This document shows positions 1 through 41,887 of a stretch of DNA of 64,000 bases, in pieces; the stretch's first letter is position 1; every line of letters starts with the position of its first letter. Below the pieces are notes generated by a model, which saw nothing but the letters and a program-made list of their open reading frames with translations, was not told where the DNA came from and searched no databases. The position numbers and the translations under genes are program-made. Source of the DNA: a virus; the IMG/VR virus record IMGVR_UViG_3300031673_000014, positions 17,146 to 81,145 of that record. One strand, given 5' to 3'.

Positions 1-1
1 G

Positions 2-187
2 TTCGGTCGGAATAATCTTATTAAATATTTGAAAGATGAAAAAATTATCATGAAATCTAATGAACCATATCAAAAATATCTACATTATTTTAAAGCTGTA
101 GAGGTTGAAACAAGTGTTGGATTAAAATTAAAACCAGTAGCTTTTCAGAAAGGTGTAGATTTTATTTTAAAAAGAATAGGGAAATAA
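2..187 (+). CDS. KilAC-type phage antirepressor, C-terminal fragment
   Basis: The frame is open from the window edge to a TAA at 185-187, giving 61 residues. The tail contains 'MKSNEPYQKY' followed by 'KPVAFQKGVDFILKRI', which matches the end of KilAC domains (a short helix, a 'pYQkYi' segment, a 'T.KG..yi.k.i' end). Proteins with this domain usually counteract a phage repressor. The start lies outside the window. A second KilAC protein is encoded on the minus strand near 26 kb, so the phage has at least two. Confidence 0.65.
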   Translation, partial: FGRNNLIKYLKDEKIIMKSNEPYQKYLHYFKAVEVETSVGLKLKPVAFQKGVDFILKRIGK

Positions 188-251: not shown

Positions 252-1025
252 ATGAAGGAAATACGCTTAGTTGGAAGAGCTAAAAATAACATTTTTCTAT
301 CTATCTGTGAGAAAAAAGGATTATTCACAAATAGGGTGATAGCTGATTACTTTGGTATACCGGAAGGTAAAATAGGAAAGATTATTAATCTGGCTAAAGG
401 CTCTGTTTTAAACTCAAAAGGGGATTACTTAGAGTCATCGAAGATTATAGCAAAAAAGCTAAATCTACTTGAAGAAGATTTGTTTCCATTTTCATTATAC
501 AGCATTGAAGAGACCAAATTTAACCTAGAGATGAACATTGAAGACAGGGTTAAAATTTTAGACGATTCTTATATATTTGACAGGATAGAAAGCAATCAAT
601 TAAAAAAATCTTTAAACGATATACTTGATACAATCCCACCGAGGGAAAAGCTTGCAATCGAACACAAATACGGTCTTAACGGAGAAGAACCTAAAACCTT
701 AGAAGCCGTCGGAATGATCCTTAATGTTTCCAAAGAAAGATGCCGACAAATAATATGTAAGGGCGAAAGGAGACTAAGACATCCTAAAAGAGTATCCAAA
801 CTAATACAATTTATGGATTTCGAGCCTACCGACGGGGATGGAATAGGCTCTAGTGTTATTAAGATAAAAAGATTAAAAGAAGAAATAAAAGATCTTTATA
901 GAAAGGTTTCTTCTGGGGAAATATCCCGAAAGGAATATAGAGACTTTAATAGTCGTTTAAATTGTTTACAGATTATGCTCAATCGAGAGATATTAGAACT
1001 TAAAACAAAAAAGGGGGAATTATGA
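252..1025 (+). CDS. Sigma-70 region-4-like transcription regulator
   Basis: This is a 257-residue protein. Residues about 117-180 look like sigma-70 region 4: 'TIPPREKLAIEHKYGL', then a helix-turn-helix 'TLEAVGMILNVSKERCRQI' and 'GERRLRHPKR', as in primary sigma factors. Residues 25-80 look like a separate XRE-type helix-turn-helix. I see no region 2, so it is not a normal sigma factor. It may recruit or redirect RNA polymerase, perhaps at the late promoters. The start follows AGGGGGAATT. It is the first gene after a spacer-operator promoter, so it is probably controlled with other operator-bearing genes. Confidence 0.7.
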   Translation: MKEIRLVGRAKNNIFLSICEKKGLFTNRVIADYFGIPEGKIGKIINLAKGSVLNSKGDYLESSKIIAKKLNLLEEDLFPFSLYSIEETKFNLEMNIEDRVKILDDSYIFDRIESNQLKKSLNDILDTIPPREKLAIEHKYGLNGEEPKTLEAVGMILNVSKERCRQIICKGERRLRHPKRVSKLIQFMDFEPTDGDGIGSSVIKIKRLKEEIKDLYRKVSSGEISRKEYRDFNSRLNCLQIMLNREILELKTKKGEL

Positions 1026-1608: not shown

Positions 1609-1775
1609 ATGGCACAAGCCGCAACTGTTTTAATTATTCAAATATTGATCGAATTCTTCCAACAAAAGAAGAAGTTGACTTTCTCTGTAAAGATATCAAA
1701 ATTATAGATAAAGTTGCTGAGAACGCCATCCTAAGCGGTGATTTAGAGACAAAAATAAATCCTGTTGACAAATAA
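1605..1775 (+). CDS. Small hypothetical protein (56 aa)
   Basis: The ATG overlaps the stop of the kinase gene (ATGA) and follows GGGGGAATTGTT. The product begins 'MNGTSRNCFNYSNIDRI' and matches no family I know. Its last codons contain the TTGACA of the next promoter. Confidence 0.6.
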   Translation: MNGTSRNCFNYSNIDRILPTKEEVDFLCKDIKIIDKVAENAILSGDLETKINPVDK

Positions 1776-1793
1776 ATATTAAAGACTTAAAAT
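1765..1793 (+). promoter_or_regulatory. Predicted late promoter ahead of head genes
   Basis: TTGACA at 1765-1770 and TAAAAT at 1788-1793 are 17 nt apart. Transcription would start near 1800 and meet a strong terminator at 1826-1859, making a leader of about 60 nt unless the terminator is bypassed. Confidence 0.55.
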
Positions 1794-1825
1794 CATAACA
1801 TAAATCTAACGGGAGTTCGATAACG

Positions 1826-1859
1826 AGACCTGTTCCTTAACTGGGACAGGTCTTTTTTT
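1826..1859 (+). terminator. Intrinsic terminator directly before the protease start
   Basis: AGACCTGTTCC (1826-1836) pairs with GGGACAGGTCT (1843-1853) with one G-U pair, then seven T follow. The T tract ends at the start codon of the next gene, so the hairpin could act as a terminator and could also mask the start. Confidence 0.8.
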
Positions 1860-3353
1860 ATGCTTATGATAGAAAACGATTATATTTACACAGAAGCAAG
1901 AATCTCGAAAAGCATTGTCGGCGAACAATGGGAAACTGATAAGGCCGGAAATCCTATTATAATAATCGAGGCTTCTAATGAGGATCTTGACTATGAGGGC
2001 GAACGGGTCCTGAGATCTGCTCTATTAAACAGTAGAGATTACTTTCTTCAAAACGGCGTTATTTCTTATGATCACAAACATCTACCTTCCTCAGACAATC
2101 ACTCATGGGATCCTGAATGGAATTCCGAGAAATATGTAATAGGGAAACCTATAGATGCATGGGAAGGAAAAGACGATAACGGAAAAAAAGTAGTTCTTGT
2201 AAAAGCTGTCCTTTCCCGGTCAAATGCTATTGCCAAAGAGATAATTGGAAAACTTCGCGACGGACTAGAAACTGTTAAAGCTTCCGTTGGCGGTCGTAAA
2301 GTGAAAAAAGCGTTTAAAATGGATACGAACACATATAAAGAAGTACCTACCATTATGGCGGTAGACTGGGATGAAGTCGCTTTGACTTACAAGCCAGTTA
2401 ATCAGTCTCTTGGAGCTACAACTTTATGTCCGAAGGAATTTGTGAAATCTCTTACTGCCGGTTCAAGTGCGAATCCTGCAGAGATGTCCGGGGGAAATGC
2501 CTTACAAGTGCAATCCTTAGAGGGGTCTCCTGTTAGATCCTTAATGACTAAGTTAAGAAATAAAGAGATAAGCAAAAGTAGTGATGCAATTAATCATCTT
2601 GTGAATCTTGGTTACTCGACAGAGAAAGCCGGGAATGTCCTCAAGGTGATATTGAAAAAATATTTAGGAGATATTGTTATGGCAAAAAACGACAACGTTA
2701 ATGACATCATCGATTCCTCCACCGATGAGCTTTTAAAAGCCCTGGAAGACCTTGAGGGCGGTGGTGATGTTCTTATCAAAGGTATTGATAAGATGAAAGA
2801 TGATGGCGTGTACAAAAACCGTGGTGGTCACATGTACATGAAAAAAGCCGATGGAAAATATGAGAAGATGGATGAAGATTCACCTGATTATGACGGCGAA
2901 GATGATGATGATGATGACAATGATGAAGACGACATGGGTAAATCCCTTGGCGAAGAAGTCATTGATGCAACTGAAGTCATCGAAAGTATGGAAAAATCAA
3001 TCAAAAAACTTGTTGGAATGGTTGAATCCCTTTCGACAACTGTTGAAAAACAGAGTTCTTTGATGAAATCTATTGGGGCTGTTACTGCCGAAGATTCTGT
3101 TTTGATTAAATCAATTGCAGGAACTCCGCAACCGAGACAGACAACCAATGGGTTAAAAGTTGAACCAAGATTTCAAAAATCTCAGGTAGACGCGCTGATG
3201 AAAGTAACAACTGAATCGTTGATCAAATCAATGATTGATGCAGATATTGATGGAAACACAATGGCTGCGGCAAACCTTGCTTTCAGAAAAGGCGGAATTC
3301 AGGCTGTTGTGGCCAACGTTCCCCGAGTTGCTGAACTGCTGGTGAAGGAGTAA
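1860..3353 (+). CDS. Prohead protease fused to scaffold domain
   Basis: This 497-residue protein has an N-terminal prohead-protease/XkdF-like domain: 'SNEDLDYEGERV' near 39-50, a His in 'ISYDHKH' (68-74), a probable catalytic Ser in 'VKASVGG' (139-145) and the typical end 'WDEVALTYKPVN' (170-181). An acidic Asp-rich linker near residues 340-360 and a coiled-coil region follow, typical of a scaffold. Residues 198-221 repeat a motif found in the capsid protein. The start is uncertain: ATG at 1860 and 1866 both lack a clear Shine-Dalgarno and abut a terminator. Protease and scaffold in one gene recalls lambda C/Nu3. Confidence 0.8.
   Translation: MLMIENDYIYTEARISKSIVGEQWETDKAGNPIIIIEASNEDLDYEGERVLRSALLNSRDYFLQNGVISYDHKHLPSSDNHSWDPEWNSEKYVIGKPIDAWEGKDDNGKKVVLVKAVLSRSNAIAKEIIGKLRDGLETVKASVGGRKVKKAFKMDTNTYKEVPTIMAVDWDEVALTYKPVNQSLGATTLCPKEFVKSLTAGSSANPAEMSGGNALQVQSLEGSPVRSLMTKLRNKEISKSSDAINHLVNLGYSTEKAGNVLKVILKKYLGDIVMAKNDNVNDIIDSSTDELLKALEDLEGGGDVLIKGIDKMKDDGVYKNRGGHMYMKKADGKYEKMDEDSPDYDGEDDDDDDNDEDDMGKSLGEEVIDATEVIESMEKSIKKLVGMVESLSTTVEKQSSLMKSIGAVTAEDSVLIKSIAGTPQPRQTTNGLKVEPRFQKSQVDALMKVTTESLIKSMIDADIDGNTMAAANLAFRKGGIQAVVANVPRVAELLVKE
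2679..3353 (+). CDS. Possible nested scaffold protein from internal in-frame start
   Basis: Within the protease gene an in-frame ATG (codon 274) follows TTTAGGAGATATTGTT, a clear AGGAG ribosome site. Translation from it gives a 224-residue protein beginning 'MAKNDNVNDIID' that holds only the acidic linker and coiled-coil scaffold part. Lambda Nu3 is made in this way from inside gene C. This is an inference from the sequence signal. Confidence 0.5.
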   Translation: MAKNDNVNDIIDSSTDELLKALEDLEGGGDVLIKGIDKMKDDGVYKNRGGHMYMKKADGKYEKMDEDSPDYDGEDDDDDDNDEDDMGKSLGEEVIDATEVIESMEKSIKKLVGMVESLSTTVEKQSSLMKSIGAVTAEDSVLIKSIAGTPQPRQTTNGLKVEPRFQKSQVDALMKVTTESLIKSMIDADIDGNTMAAANLAFRKGGIQAVVANVPRVAELLVKE

Positions 3354-3357
3354 TAAG

Positions 3358-4791
3358 ATGGATGTAAACAATTTTGCAACAAGCAATTACGGGTTTGGCG
3401 GTGGCGTAGGAGTTGGTAATATTGATGCTGAAGCATTGAATAAAGCTCTTACTGCCGGTGATTCTGCTAATCCTGCCGCAATGGGAACTGGTGGTAATAC
3501 CCTTCAGTTCGAGTCACTTGAATCTCAGCTTATTTCGGCTCTTGCTGAAAGAGTAGAAGATTTTAAACTGATGAAGATGCAACCTAAAAACAAGGTCGGA
3601 TCTACTGTTCATCAGTACACACAGGCAACTAACTCAGGAGAGTATGAAGGGCTCGGTACTGCCGAACTTGGCGATCCCATTGAGTCAACGTCTGTATTCG
3701 CTAGAAATACTCGTAATGTGAAGTATTTCCAGACAAAAAGAGAAGTTTCAATTCAGGCTCAGTCATTAAGCCCTGTAATCGGCGGTGCGGCTGAAGCAAC
3801 CGAAGAAAGACTTGGAACACATGTTATGTTGAAAGGTACAGAGTACTATTGTTTCCATGGAAACGAAGCGGTTTCTCCAAACCTTCCAAGTGGGTATCCT
3901 GCACAGATTAGAGCTGAAGCTCCAAACAATGTTTTTAACATGAATGGACTGAAAGTTTCTGACGCTGGCGGTGAGGCTGTTATAGAAGCTGCAATCGGTT
4001 CTATTTATGAGCTCGGTGGTGAAGTATCAGATATGTTCTTCCCCCCTTCCATTGCTAATGACTGGCAGAATCTTTTAAAAGACAGATACCGATACAATTC
4101 TGGTGACAAAACAGCCGGAACAAAATTGACTACTTTTCAGTCAATGTACGGTCGAGACATTTGGATCTCTGGTAGAGCCGGAATCGACAAAATGTATAAG
4201 ATCAAAACAAGGCCTGTAGCGTCTTCTTTGACGACTTTAAGACCTACAGCTCCGACTTTCGCTCTCGCTGCTCAGGCTTTAACGGCTCCCGGAACTCCCG
4301 GTTTTGTAACTGCTACTGCAGGAACTTACCGATATACAGTTTTTGCTGTTGATGCAAGTGGTCTAGTTTCTGCCGCCGCTGCCGAGGCGAATCTCGCTCT
4401 TACTGCCGGTCAGGAAGCAAAAATAACAATCACTCCCGGTATTGCTCCTTTGGCAACTGGTTATATTGTTTGTCGTGGAAAGAAAGACGTTACTACAGGA
4501 ACTGATGTTCGTGAAATGTATAGAGTCGCTGATAGTGGTGCTGCTACTACTGTAACTCTTGATCAGAATGCTGAACTTCCGGGAACTGCAGAAATGCTTC
4601 TTCTTTCTTCTGAAGGCGTTGAAAACTCTTATCAGTGGGATTCGTTCCTTGATCTTAGAAGATTCAACCTTGGGCCAACAAGAGCGTCAATTCCTTTCCT
4701 ACTCTTATGGTATGGAACACCTGACCTGAAGATCGCCAACTTTAACGGGATCATCAAAAACGTCGGACACAGTGGTATTGACTGGTTCTAA
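3358..4791 (+). CDS. Major capsid protein
   Basis: A 477-residue protein directly after the protease/scaffold, with ribosome site AAGGAG. The N-terminal ~55 residues are Gly/Ala-rich and carry 'LTAGDSANPAAM' (31-42), shared with the protease, suggesting a processed arm. A region around residues 285-400 is Ala/Thr/Gly-rich with 'YRYTVFAVDASGLVSA' typical of Ig/fibronectin-type domains, apparently inserted before the final 'GVENSYQWDSFLDLRRFNLG' segment. A terminator follows, which fits a very strongly expressed gene. Identity comes mainly from position and composition. Confidence 0.8.
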   Translation: MDVNNFATSNYGFGGGVGVGNIDAEALNKALTAGDSANPAAMGTGGNTLQFESLESQLISALAERVEDFKLMKMQPKNKVGSTVHQYTQATNSGEYEGLGTAELGDPIESTSVFARNTRNVKYFQTKREVSIQAQSLSPVIGGAAEATEERLGTHVMLKGTEYYCFHGNEAVSPNLPSGYPAQIRAEAPNNVFNMNGLKVSDAGGEAVIEAAIGSIYELGGEVSDMFFPPSIANDWQNLLKDRYRYNSGDKTAGTKLTTFQSMYGRDIWISGRAGIDKMYKIKTRPVASSLTTLRPTAPTFALAAQALTAPGTPGFVTATAGTYRYTVFAVDASGLVSAAAAEANLALTAGQEAKITITPGIAPLATGYIVCRGKKDVTTGTDVREMYRVADSGAATTVTLDQNAELPGTAEMLLLSSEGVENSYQWDSFLDLRRFNLGPTRASIPFLLLWYGTPDLKIANFNGIIKNVGHSGIDWF

Positions 4792-16378: not shown

Positions 16379-16770
16379 TGGCTAGAAAACTTTTAGCAGT
16401 AGAAGGATTAACAATATCTCACAGTTCAGGTTCGGCGGTTTCCGGTGGGACTTTCACTATTACAAGTGCTCCCTCTTTAAAATATGCTGTTAAAAATGTC
16501 ACTTTTAAAAAGGTATACAGAGGAACTTTAACTTTTACCTTTACCGGAGGTAGTCACTCTTCCGGGACTTCTGGTTCAGCTACAGGGGCAGGGACCATAA
16601 ATTTTACAGCTACAAAAAATAAGATTGACGGACAGTTTGTTTTAAGAGTAGAGGATACCGGGACTTTAACAGGAGTTTATATTCCCCCAAGTGTCCCACC
16701 GCCTACTGTGGCGTTTACTTCTAATGTAGAGATATCAGATGCCGGACAGTCTAAGGCTTTAGGAGAATAG
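16378..16770 (+). CDS. Small baseplate/spike-tip-like protein
   Basis: 130 residues rich in Gly, Ser and Thr, with a Pro-rich 'YIPPSVPPPTV' near residue 100. It lies between the spike and the LysM baseplate gene. PAAR-like tip proteins occur here, but no PAAR motif is visible, so the role is open. Confidence 0.45.
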   Translation: MARKLLAVEGLTISHSSGSAVSGGTFTITSAPSLKYAVKNVTFKKVYRGTLTFTFTGGSHSSGTSGSATGAGTINFTATKNKIDGQFVLRVEDTGTLTGVYIPPSVPPPTVAFTSNVEISDAGQSKALGE

Positions 16771-24169: not shown

Positions 24170-25666
24170 TTATACTTTCTTGGCTGTAAGAGTCAAGATG
24201 ATGTTTCTTGCAGTCTCCATTTCACTCATATTCATTTCTTTTAATTGACACTTCCGGCCAATAGCGACATATATCTTCATCCATAAGATATTCCTTCTCC
24301 GGAAACTTTCGGTATGGATTATTCTCTTTTTACCGTCCAGTTCCTTTACTGATTGCTCACCTACGTACCGATTGATCATTGCGTTAATTTCTTCACGGAA
24401 AGATTTTTCTTTCATTGACGGGGTAATATGAGCGTTTCCAGAGATTATCTCAAGTTCTGGTTTATGCTGTCCCGGGAGACCTTTTCCTCCGTCTTTTTTT
24501 TCTTTATATTCAAGAGCCCTGTCTTGTTCCCATATCCAATTCTTGAAAAAAGATATGAAGTCCGGATCTGCCGGTGCTGTGATATAAGCGAAGTCTTTGT
24601 ATGTTTTGAATCTTGTCGCTCGATTCAGGCATTGGATTAACCATGGCTCAGAGCGGTATATGTGCAGAATGATCATAAATGCTGTATTCGGGGCATCTAA
24701 TCCTTCTGAAGCTTGATTACAGCTACTTAAGACAGGGAATTCACCTTTTCTATAACTTTTTATTATACCAAGAGAATCTTTCATTTGAGAGTCAACGGAT
24801 TTACATTTACACCACTTATGATTTACATGTCTGGAATACTCTCTGGCTAGTTCAATGTCAGCTCCAACAATAATCATTTGAGCCCAAGGATTATTTCTTC
24901 TATATTCCATAAATTCAGACATTGCATTGTCTATTACTTGAAAAGCATAATCACTTCGAACGGCTGCATTAAGATGTTCTCTGTCCATAGAGTCATATTC
25001 AATAATCTTTTCACCTTTTTTATATTCCCCGGATCCGTCTATAAGATTTAATTTTACAGGAATAATGGCATCTTCTCTGAGGGCATCTTCCCGGGTATAT
25101 GTTACCCATCGTATATTTTTAGTTTCTGTTTTATCCAGCATATTATTTTTATATGGGAAAAATGAGATCTTATCCCCGGTGTGACGAAAGGCGGTCCCGG
25201 TCATAAAAACACAAAGTTTTGCTAATTTTACCAACTCAAGAAAAGGCTTCTCCCAGCTCCCATCACTGGAAACGTGATGATGTTCATCAGCAATAAGAAT
25301 ATAATTATATTTTTTGAAATCTTCTATTATATTGTCGGCATTACTGGCAATGGCTTGAAAAGTTATCCCGAATCCGTCTAATCCCCTTGATGGATCTTTT
25401 CCGTTATCCGCAACCCTTATTGTTTTCCCGGAATCAAAGAAAGGATCAATCATACTTTCTTCAATTTGGTATACTAACGATAACCGGGGCGCGACATGCA
25501 TAATTTTATCAAAGCCATTACCAATTAGATGTTTTGCAAATAGAATAGAATCTCCGCTTTTACCGGATCCCGGATGAGCATCTATAAATATTTTATTTAT
25601 TGGTTCACCTTCAATAATTTCGTTACATATAGAAATTACTTCAGATTGATGTTTTCTCCAAGCCAT
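24170..25666 (-). CDS. SF2 DEAD/DEAH-type helicase
   Basis: 498 residues. Walker A 'AHPGSGKS' (30-37), motif Ia 'VAPRLSLVYQ', motif II DEHH (127-130), motif III 'MTGTAF', and motifs V/VI 'SEGLDAPNT' and 'QCLNRATRF'. This is a complete SF2 helicase core of the UvsW/restriction-helicase type. It could act in recombination or replication fork processing. Ribosome site AAGGATAATAAATA. Confidence 0.85.
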   Translation of the reverse strand: MAWRKHQSEVISICNEIIEGEPINKIFIDAHPGSGKSGDSILFAKHLIGNGFDKIMHVAPRLSLVYQIEESMIDPFFDSGKTIRVADNGKDPSRGLDGFGITFQAIASNADNIIEDFKKYNYILIADEHHHVSSDGSWEKPFLELVKLAKLCVFMTGTAFRHTGDKISFFPYKNNMLDKTETKNIRWVTYTREDALREDAIIPVKLNLIDGSGEYKKGEKIIEYDSMDREHLNAAVRSDYAFQVIDNAMSEFMEYRRNNPWAQMIIVGADIELAREYSRHVNHKWCKCKSVDSQMKDSLGIIKSYRKGEFPVLSSCNQASEGLDAPNTAFMIILHIYRSEPWLIQCLNRATRFKTYKDFAYITAPADPDFISFFKNWIWEQDRALEYKEKKDGGKGLPGQHKPELEIISGNAHITPSMKEKSFREEINAMINRYVGEQSVKELDGKKRIIHTESFRRRNILWMKIYVAIGRKCQLKEMNMSEMETARNIILTLTAKKV

Positions 25667-25750
25667 TATTTATTATCCTTTCTGCAAAATAATACGCGAT
25701 GATCATAATCTTGCACCGTTAAATAAGATAGGTCGAAATCCTGTCCGATC

Positions 25751-26374
25751 TTATTTATTCTCTTTAATATATTTCTTCCTGAAATTATCTATGTTCTGCA
25801 TTGTCATAACTGCTTGAGGGTAGTTTCTACTCTCGGAGACGTTTGTTCTAAGAGTCAATAATCCAAGATTTAAAGATTTTTGAGAGGGTATATTTTTCCC
25901 GGTCAACAACCCATTATCTCTCATAATGTCAAATATTTCTGTTTGGCTTAACCCTAAATGTTTGCCAGCATCACGAATAGAATAATGTTTTGATTCATCT
26001 CTCAGGGCAGCATCAGCAAGTGCAGCTTTTGGTTTTAGAATTGCATTTTCTTCCTCTAGTTTCTTATACCTCTGAATAGCGAGCTCATAACCTTTTACGA
26101 TCATCAAAGCTTCTTCTGCCTGTGTTGTTGGCAACTTCCTACGATCATCGGAAGTGATTAAAGAACTATTTTCCTTAATTCTCATTGAAACTGCCGTTAC
26201 TTCATATTCGTTCAAATAAGTAATCTTACCATTCTTAACTTTATCAGGAAAAATCTCATTAACCCTTTTTATTACAAGGGCATAACTTACTCCTAATGAA
26301 TCTGCAACTTCTTTTATGGTCATTGTTTTTTCTGGAAAATCTTCTTGTGGAAATAATGCAAGATCTCTGTTCAT
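25751..26374 (-). CDS. KilAC-domain antirepressor with N-terminal helix-turn-helix
   Basis: 207 residues from the ATG after AAGGAGTTTTTT. N-terminal 'MTIKEVADSLGVSYALVIKRV' is a helix-turn-helix; a coiled region ('YKKLEEENAILKPKAALADAAL') leads to a KilAC domain ('YSIRDAGKHLGLSQTEIFDIMRDNGLL'). The ribosome site is buried in a perfect 18-bp hairpin and a 20-codon leader frame precedes it. A longer form from GTG at 26407 is possible through coupling to the leader. Confidence 0.75.
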   Translation of the reverse strand: MNRDLALFPQEDFPEKTMTIKEVADSLGVSYALVIKRVNEIFPDKVKNGKITYLNEYEVTAVSMRIKENSSLITSDDRRKLPTTQAEEALMIVKGYELAIQRYKKLEEENAILKPKAALADAALRDESKHYSIRDAGKHLGLSQTEIFDIMRDNGLLTGKNIPSQKSLNLGLLTLRTNVSESRNYPQAVMTMQNIDNFRKKYIKENK

Positions 26375-26379
26375 AAAAA

Positions 26380-26455
26380 ACTCCTTAAGTCTTCCTGTAG
26401 CGACCACTAAAAAGCTAGTTCGGAAAACTTTATAGGGCAGGAAGACTTAAGGAGT
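26380..26455 (-). promoter_or_regulatory. RBS-sequestering leader hairpin of the antirepressor
   Basis: Positions 26380-26397 and 26438-26455 are perfect 18-bp inverted repeats around a 40-nt loop. In the minus-strand mRNA the downstream arm contains the AAGGAG of the antirepressor, so the site is fully paired. A smaller inner stem (CTAaAAAG/CTTTaTAG) extends the structure. Confidence 0.85.
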
Positions 26456-26469
26456 CTTTCAAATCCCAA
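26407..26469 (-). CDS. Possible 20-codon leader peptide
   Basis: A TTG start preceded by GGAGAG gives a 20-codon frame that runs through the first hairpin arm and stops at TAG inside the loop. The TAG shares its G with a GTG that is in frame with the antirepressor. Translation would open the hairpin and allow reinitiation. Confidence 0.4.
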   Translation of the reverse strand: MGFERLLKSSCPIKFSELAF

Positions 26470-26515
26470 ACTAATATAACTCTCCGCTAAAAGAGCAGAT
26501 CAACGATCTTCCATA

Positions 26516-26544
26516 ATAATACAGACATTAAAGAACATTGTCAA
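26516..26544 (-). promoter_or_regulatory. Minus-strand sigma-70 promoter for the antirepressor
   Basis: Read on the minus strand, TTGACA (544-539) and TATTAT (521-516) are separated by exactly 17 nt. It would start transcription near 26508, leaving a leader of about 130 nt. Confidence 0.75.
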
Positions 26545-26562
26545 ACAATATAAAATAAACTA

Positions 26563-26575
26563 GACATACGATTAT
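26563..26575 (-). promoter_or_regulatory. Operator-like element ATAATCGTATGTC
   Basis: This differs at two positions from the CTAATCGTATGTA element at 23657-23669. It lies between the divergent antirepressor and 26607 genes, upstream of the minus-strand promoter and within the weak plus-strand promoter region. Confidence 0.55.
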
Positions 26576-26606
26576 TATTGTGCTACTGTTTAGTTCAGGG
26601 GGATAT

Positions 26607-27638
26607 ATGAACTATACCGAATATCTAAAAAGAATTGATGTTTTAAAAAAACAGAACATCAAAGTAGGAAGTTTTGACTTTAATGGTCAAATGCCGATTG
26701 AATTCCTTAAGATTGAAATAATTGAGGAAGAAGTGACCGATTCTGCTTTTCATTGGCAGGACAAGTGGTCAAATAATGGGGGGAAATGGGTAAAAGAAAA
26801 ATCTATCGTTGACTGGGATAAAAACTACATTCTTATGCTTGGCGGTTTGTGTGGGATCGAGTCTGATCACTCTAAAAGCGAAAAAATGGGAAAATACTCA
26901 TATCTTTCAAAGTCTACCTGTTATCGTGTTCTTCCTTCGGGGAAAAAAGAGTATGAGTCTGCAGAATATGAATTTGATGCTGAGGTCAGGGCTGAAGAAG
27001 TAGTTTTGAAAAATGAGATTAAAGCCATGGAGTATGAGGAGAAAAAAGCTTCTAATTCTCTACGGCAGAATGACAGAGAAGTTTCCCGGAAATACAAAAG
27101 TGATTTTGAGAAACAATTAGTCGTTGTTGAAATGGCTAAATTCGGCAGACAGAGGGCTGACACTGGGGCTCACAAGAGAGCAATACAAAAGATGATAAAA
27201 TTACCGTCTGCAAACGAATCGTTGATTGGTACTCATTTATTCTGTTTTCAGTGTGTTCCTGATTTTTCTAATAAAAATGTTCGTCAAAAGTATCTTGAAA
27301 CTGACAGTCCCGGTTCTTCTGTTTTCGGACAAATAGAACATAGAGATTCTGATGTTATTGATCAGAAAGATACTGAACCATCGGCAATGTTCCAGATAGC
27401 AGAAAAAAAAGGATCGTTAAAATCAAATGCTGTTTTATACAAGTTGGCAGGATTTGTACTTGAGTCTGAGGCACACGCTGAAGGTTTTCTGGATCTTTTA
27501 AAGGGGTATAATGAGATTGAAGATAAAACTTCAAAGTTGATATTCTGGGTAGATCTATTTGAATCAATAGATCCTATTATTAAAAATGGCACTATCGGTG
27601 CTAAAAAAGATTACTTAAAAAACTGGGGGAATAAATGA
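26607..27638 (+). CDS. Hypothetical protein, possibly a recombination protein
   Basis: 343 residues from the ATG after CAGGGGGATAT. 'VVEMAKFGRQRADTGAHKRAIQKMI' near residues 170-200 resembles the 'aeT.A..RAir' pattern of single-strand annealing proteins (Rad52/Erf/Sak groups), but this is weak. It is the first gene of the operon that contains the SbcD-SbcC fusion, which would fit a recombination role. Confidence 0.5.
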   Translation: MNYTEYLKRIDVLKKQNIKVGSFDFNGQMPIEFLKIEIIEEEVTDSAFHWQDKWSNNGGKWVKEKSIVDWDKNYILMLGGLCGIESDHSKSEKMGKYSYLSKSTCYRVLPSGKKEYESAEYEFDAEVRAEEVVLKNEIKAMEYEEKKASNSLRQNDREVSRKYKSDFEKQLVVVEMAKFGRQRADTGAHKRAIQKMIKLPSANESLIGTHLFCFQCVPDFSNKNVRQKYLETDSPGSSVFGQIEHRDSDVIDQKDTEPSAMFQIAEKKGSLKSNAVLYKLAGFVLESEAHAEGFLDLLKGYNEIEDKTSKLIFWVDLFESIDPIIKNGTIGAKKDYLKNWGNK

Positions 27639-36775: not shown

Positions 36776-36922
36776 ATGTGGTTGACTGTAAAAGAATATG
36801 CTGAAAAGCATGGTATAACCGATCAGGCAGTAAGAAAGCGAATGAAAGCAGGGCATATCCCTGAAATTAGAATCAGAAAAAACGACGGGGGAAAGATTGA
36901 GATAAAAGAGAGGGAATCATGA
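36776..36922 (+). CDS. Small MerR/excisionase-like helix-turn-helix protein (48 aa)
   Basis: Ribosome site AAGGAGTTGTTAT. 'WLTVKEYAEKHGITDQAVRKRM' is a helix-turn-helix followed by 'AGHIPEIRIR', the pattern of small MerR/Xis-like proteins. It overlaps the replication regulator by 4 bp. The AT-rich upstream gap (36690-36775) probably holds its promoter, with a TATAAT at about 36740. Confidence 0.65.
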   Translation: MWLTVKEYAEKHGITDQAVRKRMKAGHIPEIRIRKNDGGKIEIKERES

Positions 36923-37626
36923 CTATAAAAGAAATTTCAGATTTTACCGGGAAAGAGATAAGAACTATAAGAAGATGGATTGCCAAAGCAGGTGACAAAG
37001 TGTCACAGGTGCCCCATGACAAAATGTCACAGGGTATTCCTTTCGATTATTCAATAGATGATGTTGAATGCATATTGCAGTCAGGATCAATGTCTAAAGA
37101 TGCCGTAACTATTGTTATGAGTAATGCAAGAAACAATAATAAAACATCGGACACTTTGGCAGACAATACGTCCGGCGGTGATATTGTTGTGTATAATGCA
37201 CATAATCAAACAGAATTGTTTTTAAGATTTTTTGATAAAATACAAAAAGATAATTTAAATGCAATTGATAGAATGCAAAAAGACAATCAAATATTCATGC
37301 AAAATATTATTGCTGAGATCAGGTTGCAAAATGCAACCCAATCAAAACCTAATAATCAGTTACAAATAGAAGATATACCAGAAAAGCCATTAAGAGAGGC
37401 ATATAAAGAGAAAATGAGAGAATATGCCTTCAAGTCTGGTAAAGATTTTGGAACAGCGTATCGATATGTTTATGATGAAATCGGTTCTATATATGGGATT
37501 AGGGTAATGGCAAGAGCTAAAAATAGAAAATGCACCGGAGTTGATATACTTGAATCTGACGGATATCTGAATAAAGGAATCTCTGTAATCATAAAGCTGA
37601 TCAAAACATTAGAAGAGGGAGTTTAA
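36919..37626 (+). CDS. Phage DNA-binding protein with HTH and ORF6C-like C-terminus
   Basis: 235 residues. N-terminal helix-turn-helix 'TIKEISDFTGKEIRTIRRWI', a variable middle, and a C-terminal 'YRYVYDEIGSIYGIRVMARAKNRKCTGVDILE' segment as in ORF6C/antirepressor-like C-termini. Just upstream of the replisome organiser. The gene contains two palindromes. Confidence 0.6.
   Translation: MTIKEISDFTGKEIRTIRRWIAKAGDKVSQVPHDKMSQGIPFDYSIDDVECILQSGSMSKDAVTIVMSNARNNNKTSDTLADNTSGGDIVVYNAHNQTELFLRFFDKIQKDNLNAIDRMQKDNQIFMQNIIAEIRLQNATQSKPNNQLQIEDIPEKPLREAYKEKMREYAFKSGKDFGTAYRYVYDEIGSIYGIRVMARAKNRKCTGVDILESDGYLNKGISVIIKLIKTLEEGV
36992..37029 (+). repeat. Paired palindromes TGACA-N3-TGTCA
   Basis: GTGACAAAGTGTCAC (36992-37006) and TGACAAAATGTCA (37017-37029) are two near-identical palindromes with centres 24 bp apart, inside a coding region. 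They could be operator or origin sites, or only reflect the repeated peptide 'DK.SQ'. Confidence 0.6.
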
Positions 37627-40786: not shown

Positions 40787-41007
40787 GTATTGTCATTCAT
40801 AATAAAACCGGGAAATTTTATATTCTTATTAAATTATTTGCTATAGATTCCACAAATGGGAAACATAGATATTTTTCTGTTTACAAGAGACCTTTCGGAA
40901 AGCATGTTTTTGTAAGAAGAACTCATGAGTTTTGTATGAAATTTACTCATTGGAAAGACTGGGACTTTAAAAACAGAAGAAGAAAAATAATTCTTGATAA
41001 AGATTGA
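40783..41007 (+). CDS. Small basic hypothetical protein (74 aa)
   Basis: Overlaps the previous stop. Basic ('KRPFGKHVFVRRTHEF', 'NRRRKIILDKD'), could bind nucleic acid. Last gene before the hairpin region. Confidence 0.5.
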   Translation: MSIVIHNKTGKFYILIKLFAIDSTNGKHRYFSVYKRPFGKHVFVRRTHEFCMKFTHWKDWDFKNRRRKIILDKD

Positions 41008-41056
41008 ATCATGGATTATAGTTGATTTATCAGTTTAGAACCTGACTATACGAACA

Positions 41057-41075
41057 ATAATCTAAATTAGATTAT
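41057..41075 (+). promoter_or_regulatory. Palindrome ATAATCTAA-A-TTAGATTAT
   Basis: A perfect 9-bp inverted repeat around one base. It is AT-rich and lies 3 bp before a long hairpin, so it could be an operator controlling that RNA or the AntA/AntB gene. Confidence 0.65.
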
Positions 41076-41077
41076 GA

Positions 41078-41174
41078 GACTGGTAATAGTTTTCAGAGGA
41101 ATAATACAATATGGCCGTTGTTCGTGGTTTGTATCATTCGTTCTAACTCGGGAAACTATTGCTGGTCTTTTTTT
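41078..41174 (+). ncRNA. 90-nt hairpin RNA or attenuator ahead of antirepressor
   Basis: GACTGGTAATAGTTT (41078-41092) pairs with AAACTATTGCTGGTC (41153-41167) over 15 bp with three wobbles, followed by seven T. Inside, GAATAATACAA (41099-41109) pairs with TTGTATCATTC (41129-41139) with one mismatch. No frame spans it. It is terminator-like and its T tract ends 14 nt before the antirepressor start codon. Confidence 0.65.
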
Positions 41175-41188
41175 ATTTGGAGGATTTT

Positions 41189-41887
41189 ATGAACGATTTA
41201 ATTAAGATTGAAAACAAGAACGGAATTGAGACCGTCAACGCAAGAGAACTTCACGAGTTTTTAGAGAGTAAACAGGATTTTTCTACATGGGTAAAAGGTA
41301 GAATTAAAAAGTATGATTTTTCTGCAAACATCGATTTTATTTGCTTCCATAAAAAAATGGAAGCCAACAATGCAACCATAATAGACTATCATATCTCACT
41401 TGATATGGCTAAAGAACTCTCCATGGTTGAAAATAACGAAAAGGGAAGAGAAGCCAGAAGATACTTTATTGAGTGTGAGAAAAAGGCTAAAGGCTTTGTT
41501 ACTCAAAATATAAACAGTTCTGATGTAATTATACAACTGCTACAGCAAAACCAGATAATCATGAAATCACTTATTGAAAGAGTTGATAAGGTAGAGAGTA
41601 ATTCTTTTATTGTTTCTTCCGGGAAAAAGCAAAAATATAAACTTCCCCCGGCGAAACAAATGGAATTCCAGAGTATTGGAGAAGATTATTACACAATAGC
41701 AGCTTACCAGAAGATCAGGAAAATTTCTCTTTACGATACGTCTTCACATGGGAAAATTCTTACTGGAATATGCAATCGGGAAGGAATACAGATAAGTTCT
41801 GTTAAAAGCACTACTTTCGGGATAGTAAATTCTTATCCTGAATCAGTTCTTAAGAAATATTTTGATTCTATGGTGGTCGGGAAGTAA
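41189..41887 (+). CDS. AntA/AntB-type antirepressor
   Basis: 232 residues from the ATG after TTTGGAGGATTTT. 'NARELHEFLESKQDFSTWVKGRIKKYDF' and 'YHISLDMAKELSMVENNEKGREARRYFIECEKK' are the AntA/AntB domain. The C-terminal part is variable. Antirepressors of this kind bind and inactivate the phage repressor. Expression is probably controlled by the hairpin upstream. Confidence 0.85.
   Translation: MNDLIKIENKNGIETVNARELHEFLESKQDFSTWVKGRIKKYDFSANIDFICFHKKMEANNATIIDYHISLDMAKELSMVENNEKGREARRYFIECEKKAKGFVTQNINSSDVIIQLLQQNQIIMKSLIERVDKVESNSFIVSSGKKQKYKLPPAKQMEFQSIGEDYYTIAAYQKIRKISLYDTSSHGKILTGICNREGIQISSVKSTTFGIVNSYPESVLKKYFDSMVVGK

What the first reader, a model, noticed from the sequence alone, without database searches (positions are those of the whole stretch)
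26380..26469. Antirepressor controlled by RBS-burying hairpin and overlapping leader peptide
An 18-bp perfect inverted repeat hides the AAGGAG of the KilAC gene. A 20-codon frame with a GGAG-type site passes through the first arm, and its TAG shares a base with a GTG in frame with the antirepressor. Ribosomes on the leader would open the helix. This resembles translational attenuation as in erm leaders, and is analogous in purpose to the c4 antisense control of ant in P1/P22, but the layout is different.
Basis: partly seen in the sequence, partly recalled or inferred. Interest (0 to 1): 0.82.

Follow-up and report, generated by a model that had tools for sequence, protein, structure and literature searches.

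The report
Locked leader hairpins before antirepressor genes
A phage antirepressor gene starts behind a 23-base-pair RNA hairpin that hides its ribosome-binding site and looks like a transcription stop signal, and two other antirepressor-type genes of the same phage have hairpins of the same shape, so this is probably a shared 'default-off' lock rather than a one-off with a leader peptide.

Summary
The hairpin is real. An 18-bp perfect inverted repeat (23 bp in RNA, one G·U) lies in the leader of a leftward KilAC gene (ATG 26374-26372). It buries AAGGAG completely and is the longest inverted repeat in the window; shuffled sequence never reached it. A good sigma-70 promoter (26544-26516) puts the whole hairpin in the mRNA. 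The 3' arm runs into UUUUUU that touches the AUG, so the element also looks like an intrinsic terminator. And it is not alone: the second KilAC gene and the AntA gene of this phage have leaders of the same shape (18-23-bp stem, 6-7-nt bulge on the 3' side, U-tract, start codon within 25 nt). The AntA leader has an orthologue in a related phage with two compensatory changes, and a distant KilAC phage has a similar leader. In all of those the Shine-Dalgarno lies after the U-tract, so the shared feature is the terminator-like hairpin; SD burial is special to this copy. The leader peptide is weakly supported: TTG start, 12-nt spacing, not conserved, and a ribosome at its stop codon does not open the helix. 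Best reading: a default-off attenuator that doubles as a translational lock. No experiment exists.

The parts
26516..26544 (-). sigma-70-type promoter of the KilAC operon: TTGACA 26544-26539, 17-nt spacer, TATTAT 26521-26516; TSS inferred near 26509
   Evidence: 11 of 12 consensus matches; the only promoter-like site in 25600-27000
26499..26511 (-). GAAGATCGTTGAT at the inferred transcription start; identical 13-mer, at the same 4-nt distance from the -10, in the second KilAC leader (G000:C1 16537)
   Evidence: the only two exact copies in the 81-kb genome; no other site with fewer than 2 mismatches
26407..26469 (-). candidate 20-codon leader frame (TTG...TAG); weakly supported
   Evidence: sequence; shuffle control and ribosome-constrained folding
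26438..26460 (-). 5' arm of the leader hairpin (perfect core 26455-26438)
26398..26437 (-). hairpin interior: inner helix, 9-nt apical loop UUCCGAACU (26425-26417), 6-nt 3' bulge UCGCUA (26403-26398)
   Evidence: MFE and centroid agree
26375..26397 (-). 3' arm containing the SD AAGGAG (26386-26381) and ending in UUUUUU (26380-26375), which is both U-tract and SD-AUG spacer
   Evidence: SD P(paired)=1.0; T-tract score 4.5, reached by about 0.2% of genome positions
25751..26374 (-). KilAC-domain antirepressor-like protein, 207 aa (wHTH-like N-terminus plus ANT/KilAC)
   Evidence: PF03374 E=2.3e-12; PHROG anti-repressor Ant E=7.7e-16
24170..25666 (-). next gene of the leftward operon, DEAD/ResIII-type helicase
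40994..41022 (+). promoter of the AntA leader (TTGATA-17-TATAGT)
   Evidence: 10 of 12 matches
41077..41168 (+). sister leader hairpin: 21 bp, 48-nt interior, 7-nt 3' bulge, U-tract; SD GGAGG comes after the U-tract
   Evidence: orthologue L005 7109-7198
41189..41887 (+). AntA/AntB antirepressor
   Evidence: PF08346 E=8.3e-27; phrog_5817 E=6.5e-44
1..187 (+). C-terminal end of the second KilAC antirepressor gene; its start and its leader hairpin (G000:C1 16605-16679) lie just left of the window
   Evidence: PF03374 E=8.3e-18

Best explanation
The element is a default-off leader of an early antirepressor operon. A host sigma-70 promoter starts the RNA near 26509. The long hairpin forms as its 3' arm emerges, and the U-tract then makes most transcripts stop just before or at the AUG, releasing a leader RNA of about 130 nt. 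Any transcript that reads through is still closed, because the same 3' arm holds the SD. So the hairpin is a terminator and a translational lock at once, and KilAC is made only when something keeps the two arms apart. It is one of a set of leader hairpins of the same shape that this phage lineage places before antirepressor-type genes. Shown by sequence: promoter match, hairpin, buried SD, U-tract, the sister leaders, structure kept through sequence change. Inferred: that it terminates transcription, that the state is off by default, and that a trans-acting factor (protein or RNA binding the interior loop) opens it.
For: Longest inverted repeat in the window, none like it in shuffles; minus-strand RNA is the better folded strand. 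Promoter upstream of the whole hairpin. Nothing upstream on that strand needs a terminator, because the neighbouring gene (26607) is divergent. A scan for stems of 13 bp or more with long interior and U-tract gives exactly three hits scoring 22 or more in 81 kb (26.0, 24.2, 23.7); 60 shuffled genomes gave none (max 18.9). All three lie before antirepressor-domain genes (5 such genes of 127 called; P about 3e-5, chosen after the fact). The two KilAC leaders share their 5' end, including an identical 13-mer at the same distance from the -10 (local alignment 44 against at most 43 in 500 shuffles), yet their arms are unrelated in sequence and equal in shape. The AntA leader and its orthologue differ by two compensatory double changes and three pair-preserving single changes against one break in the outer and lower inner helices. 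U-tract scores 4.5-5.9 for the five leaders. Same shape before KilAC in unrelated contig L011.
Against: No RNA data. The stem is AU-rich with a 40-nt interior, unlike textbook terminators, and the standard terminator scan (loops 3-8) did not report it. No competing antiterminator fold was evident. The exact 26-kb hairpin has no orthologue, so covariation at this copy rests on a paralogue. Two of five antirepressor-type genes (pRha, Bro-N) lack such a leader. 44 KilAC loci tested for arms over the SD and about 16 antirepressor leaders tested for U-tract hairpins mostly lack it.
Confidence: 0.6

Rival explanations
1. Pure translational attenuation by a leader peptide: ribosomes on TTG 26469-TAG 26407 open the helix and expose the KilAC SD or restart at GTG 26407.
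For: The frame exists and crosses the 5' arm. The second KilAC leader also has a TTG frame of 20 codons 12 nt after a GGAG (about 2% by shuffling). A ribosome held at codons 8-10 would free most of the SD. In Gifsy-1, anrP translation does depend on an upstream ORF (PMC4825925).
Against: TTG start with poor spacing; 16% of shuffles give such a frame here; no peptide similarity between the two KilAC leaders; no such frame with an SD seen in the AntA leaders or L011; ribosomes at codons 12-20 leave the SD closed; sister hairpins do not hide an SD.
Confidence: 0.13
2. SD sequestration with an alternative start: a phage-specific promoter inside the hairpin makes a later transcript that lacks the 5' arm and is translated, as for T4 genes e, soc and 49.
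For: T4 precedent (PMC3014915). The interior contains CTATAAAG. A transcript starting at 26424 would leave the SD mostly open. The phage encodes a sigma-like factor.
Against: The only sigma-70-like site of 9/12 or better in 25600-27000 is the upstream promoter. The promoter motif repeated in this phage (CTAATCGNNTGTATAATT) is not in the hairpin. It would not explain U-tracts or the sister leaders.
Confidence: 0.1
3. Terminated-leader RNA acting in trans: the short leader RNAs of the antirepressor genes regulate one another by loop-loop pairing, in the manner of IsrK or c4.
For: 9-nt apical loops in four leaders by my reading of the folds; the AntA and second KilAC loops share CCGYTGTTYGWGG, found nowhere else in the genome; the KilAC-1 loop has CGAAC complementary to GUUCG of the AntA loop (-6.0 kcal/mol, 1.6% of shuffles) and pairs less well with the KilAC-2 loop.
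Against: Short complementarity, tested after the fact; motif defined from the sequences it finds; no Rfam c4 match.
Confidence: 0.12
4. Chance or mutational palindrome (template switch, transposon scar) without function.
For: A perfect long inverted repeat can arise in one step; no orthologous copy of this exact hairpin is known.
Against: Sister leaders with unrelated sequence and the same shape, compensatory changes; no other copy of the arm; no flanking direct repeat found.
Confidence: 0.05

Closest known systems
IsrK-orf45-anrP of Salmonella prophage Gifsy-1 (PMC4825925)
   Same: One promoter makes a short RNA that ends at an intrinsic terminator; read-through gives an antirepressor mRNA that is translationally closed by structure; an upstream ORF is involved.
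   Different: There the structure closes an upstream ORF and the short RNA opens it in trans; here one hairpin is both terminator candidate and SD lock at the antirepressor itself. No sequence relation was tested.
c4 antisense RNA / icd-ant of P1, P7 and P22 (Rfam RF01695)
   Same: Structured RNA in the leader of an antirepressor gene; the AntA gene here belongs to the P1 AntA/AntB family.
   Different: No Rfam c4 match in any of the four leaders scanned at E up to 10 or 1; self-complementary leader rather than antisense pairing to an icd ribosome site.
Leader intrinsic terminators / attenuators, including the proposed RBS-sequestering 'bifunctional terminators' (Naville and Gautheret 2010, PMC2965389)
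   Same: Hairpin plus U-tract inside the leader, adjacent to the start codon, RBS inside the hairpin; those authors proposed concerted transcriptional and translational attenuation and wrote that no case had been demonstrated by then.
   Different: Phage antirepressor genes; very long stem and interior; no metabolite or tRNA motif found.
T4 gene e, soc and 49 initiation-region hairpins (PMC3014915)
   Same: SD buried in a hairpin to hold back a phage gene.
   Different: No promoter inside the hairpin was found; U-tract present.
erm-type translational attenuation
   Same: Leader frame through the 5' arm of a helix that hides the SD.
   Different: Weak start, no stall signal known, frame not conserved.

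Membership tests
Leader intrinsic terminator (attenuator) | stable hairpin in the 5' leader, downstream of the promoter | tested here: met
Leader intrinsic terminator (attenuator) | U-rich tract immediately after the stem | tested here: met
   UUUUUU, T-tract score 4.5
Leader intrinsic terminator (attenuator) | short G+C-rich stem with small loop (typical, not universal) | tested here: not met
   AU-rich 23-bp stem, 40-nt interior with 9-nt apical loop; the consensus scan did not report it. I therefore say 'works like' a terminator, not 'is' a canonical one
Leader intrinsic terminator (attenuator) | RNA polymerase actually stops there, with conditional read-through | not testable with these tools
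   needs 3'-end mapping or in vitro transcription
erm-type translational attenuation | SD of the gene sequestered in a helix | tested here: met
   P(paired)=1.0
erm-type translational attenuation | translated leader peptide with a proper start | tested here: inconclusive
   TTG, GGAG 12 nt away; 16% by chance
erm-type translational attenuation | ribosome stalling in the 5' arm opens the helix | tested here: inconclusive
   in silico only a ribosome at codons 4-10 frees the SD, and only partly; no stall signal known
c4 antisense RNA (RF01695) | match to the c4 covariance model | tested here: not met
   no match in four leaders
IsrK-anrP system | short RNA pairs in trans with the read-through mRNA and opens it | not tested
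   only weak loop-loop complementarity between leaders computed
T4 e/soc/49-type lock | promoter between the arms giving an unlocked transcript | tested here: not met
   no sigma-70-like site and no repeated phage promoter motif in the hairpin; unknown promoter types not covered
KilAC antirepressor (PF03374) | KilAC/ANT domain above the curated cut-off | tested here: met
   47.6 bits against 25.3

The most novel reading that the evidence does not exclude
These phages carry a family of structured leader RNAs dedicated to antirepressor genes. The terminated leaders are themselves regulatory RNAs that sense one another through their apical loops, so that antirepressors are switched on in a set order. 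The KilAC-1 copy is a natural terminator that also buries the SD.
Probability: 0.12. Interest if true: 0.82.

Novelty: new variant of a known kind. Interest (0 to 1): 0.58.

Why it matters
Antirepressors decide whether a phage leaves its quiet state, so how they are kept silent is a central question, and only a few RNA-based locks (c4, IsrK) are worked out. A recurring leader hairpin before three antirepressor-type genes of one phage, partly kept in a relative and seen before KilAC in an unrelated contig, would be a further RNA layer on this switch. The KilAC-1 copy would also be a simple natural test of a terminator that closes the ribosome site at the same time, an arrangement that was proposed in 2010 but, by that paper, had not been demonstrated.

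Tried and rejected
Relatives of KilAC, helicase and the 26607 protein: none in IMG/VR or GTDB genomes by single-protein patterns, so no direct covariation at this copy. The closest relative (G001) lacks KilAC, helicase and the SbcC-like gene here and has a Rha-type regulator and exonuclease genes instead. Repeat or mobile-element origin: arm unique in the window, no match in IMG/VR. Rfam: only sub-threshold chance hits. A first test of 44 KilAC loci, which asked only for perfect arms over the SD, found none and would have missed L011; the better question was a hairpin with a U-tract. About 16 antirepressor leaders of known phages: none comparable by the scan, except a weaker 9-bp hit before AntA of Bacteroides phage C3_41T2LP that folds into a longer imperfect stem. 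More orthologues of the AntA leader by exact 3'-arm pattern: only G001. MAFFT of the two KilAC leaders misaligns the shared 13-mer, so an anchored local comparison was used. Internal promoter: none found.

Full report
What was checked. The window is bases 17146-81145 of an 81-kb IMG/VR phage contig (G000). The finding lies between a leftward operon (KilAC 26374-25751, then a helicase) and a divergent rightward gene (26607). On the minus strand the order is: promoter TTGACA-17-TATTAT (26544-26516), inferred start near 26509, hairpin 26460-26375, ATG 26374-26372.

The hairpin. The perfect part is 18 bp (26455-26438 with 26397-26380), 40 nt apart. It is the longest exact inverted repeat in the window; 60 shuffles reached at most 16. 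In minus-strand RNA it is 23 bp with one G-U and is more stable than on the plus strand (-40.2 against -34.3 kcal/mol). AAGGAG is paired with probability 1.0. The arm does not recur in the window or in IMG/VR. The stem ends in UUUUUU that directly touches the AUG; its T-tract score (4.5) is reached by about 0.2% of genome positions. The standard terminator scan missed it because it allows loops of 3-8 nt only.

It is one of a set. A scan of the 81-kb genome for stems of 13 bp or more with an 18-70-nt interior and a U-tract gave three strong hits (scores 26.0, 24.2, 23.7). Sixty shuffled genomes gave none above 18.9. The three lie immediately upstream of KilAC-1 (this finding), a second KilAC gene (G000:C1 hairpin 16605-16679; the gene's end is in window 1-187) and an AntA/AntB antirepressor (hairpin 41077-41168, gene 41189). 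The genome has five recognised antirepressor-domain genes among 127 called; the other two (pRha near window 55009, Bro-N at G000:C1 9171) have no such leader. The chance of all three landing on these five is about 3e-5, computed after the pattern was seen.

Shape and conservation. KilAC-1, KilAC-2, AntA, the AntA-leader orthologue in phage G001 (L005 7109-7198) and a KilAC leader in an unrelated contig (L011, KilAC about 31% identical) all fold as a long outer stem, a 6-7-nt bulge on the 3' side, an inner helix and an apical loop; the apical loop is 9 nt in KilAC-1 directly, and in KilAC-2 and the AntA pair when the CC/GG closing helix is taken (my reading of the folds for the last three). The two KilAC leaders share GAAGATCGTTGAT exactly 4 nt after the -10, found nowhere else in the genome, and a short stretch after it, while their arms are unrelated: structure kept, sequence changed. 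Between the AntA leader and its orthologue the outer and lower inner helices show two compensatory double changes, three pair-preserving single changes and one break; the apical part shows three further breaks under the alignment used. In G001 this leader stands before a different gene, and the homology ends at the U-tract, so the leader behaves as a module.

What separates the two readings. In KilAC-2, AntA, its G001 orthologue and L011 the SD is downstream of the U-tract and not in the stem. The property common to the set is therefore the terminator-like hairpin. Burial of the SD is an extra feature of KilAC-1. The same trick may occur in the late-gene leader (1825-1860), where a short-loop terminator runs into the ATG of the head-protease gene and a conserved version exists in G001.

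The leader peptide. The TTG frame is real but weak: GGAG ends 12 nt upstream, and 16% of shuffles of the pre-arm sequence give a comparable frame. The KilAC-2 leader also has one (20 codons, TTG, 12 nt after GGAG; 2% of shuffles), which keeps the idea alive, but the peptides are unrelated. Folding with a ribosome footprint shows the SD partly free with a ribosome at codons 4-10 and closed at codons 12-20, so ending at TAG next to GTG would not by itself open the site.

Mechanism. Best supported is a default-off leader: most RNA would stop in the U-tract, and read-through RNA would remain untranslatable until the helix is prevented or opened. The opener is unknown. A loop-loop interaction between leaders is possible but thin: the KilAC-1 loop complements the AntA loop over 5 nt (-6.0 kcal/mol, 1.6% of shuffles).

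Comparison. The nearest experimental precedent is IsrK-orf45-anrP of Gifsy-1: a terminated leader RNA, a translationally closed antirepressor read-through mRNA and an upstream ORF (PMC4825925). Naville and Gautheret (PMC2965389) proposed terminators that also sequester the RBS and wrote that none had been shown by 2010; later cases may exist, my searches were limited. T4 e, soc and 49 use an internal promoter (PMC3014915), not found here. c4 membership is not supported by Rfam.

Limits. One genome plus one relative and one distant contig; no RNA data; several statistics were formulated after seeing the pattern; IMG/VR searches may leave out near-identical records.

Noticed in passing
window 212, 32507, 50332, 60768 (+) and 23669 (-): Five promoter-like sites share CTAATCGNNTGTATAATT (0-2 mismatches), most followed by an AGGGGGAA-type SD: a phage promoter family with a conserved spacer block, perhaps an operator.
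   Followed up: partly
window 1765-1860; L003 4993-5100: The late head-protease leader has a sigma-70-like promoter and a strong short-loop terminator whose U-tract runs into the ATG, conserved in G001: reminiscent of a late-gene leader terminator that needs antitermination.
   Followed up: partly
L003 4553-5042: G001 has about 490 noncoding bases before its late genes with a 14-bp hairpin (4584-4622) and a 21-bp long-interior hairpin with U-tract (4636-4718); candidate small RNA.
   Followed up: no
L005 7016-7224 vs window 40983-41191 and 36910-37141: The AntA leader of this phage stands before a different gene in G001, a homologue of window 36919; homology breaks at the U-tract, so the leader moves as a module.
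   Followed up: partly
window 26497-26509 and 26537-26549: Two dyads, AGATC-NNN-GATCT near the inferred start and ATTGT-NNN-ACAAT over the -35, each found once in the window; possible operators of the KilAC promoter.
   Followed up: partly
L004 13543-14292: At the matching divergent junction G001 carries a Rha-type regulator instead of KilAC, beside leftward recombination exonuclease genes.
   Followed up: no
L081 1100-1201: AntA gene of Bacteroides phage C3_41T2LP has a long imperfect leader hairpin followed by a T-rich stretch (-33.7 kcal/mol for the segment); possible further member.
   Followed up: no
window 252-1025: The phage encodes a sigma-factor-like protein (phrog_351, E=3.7e-15) directly after the second KilAC gene.
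   Followed up: no
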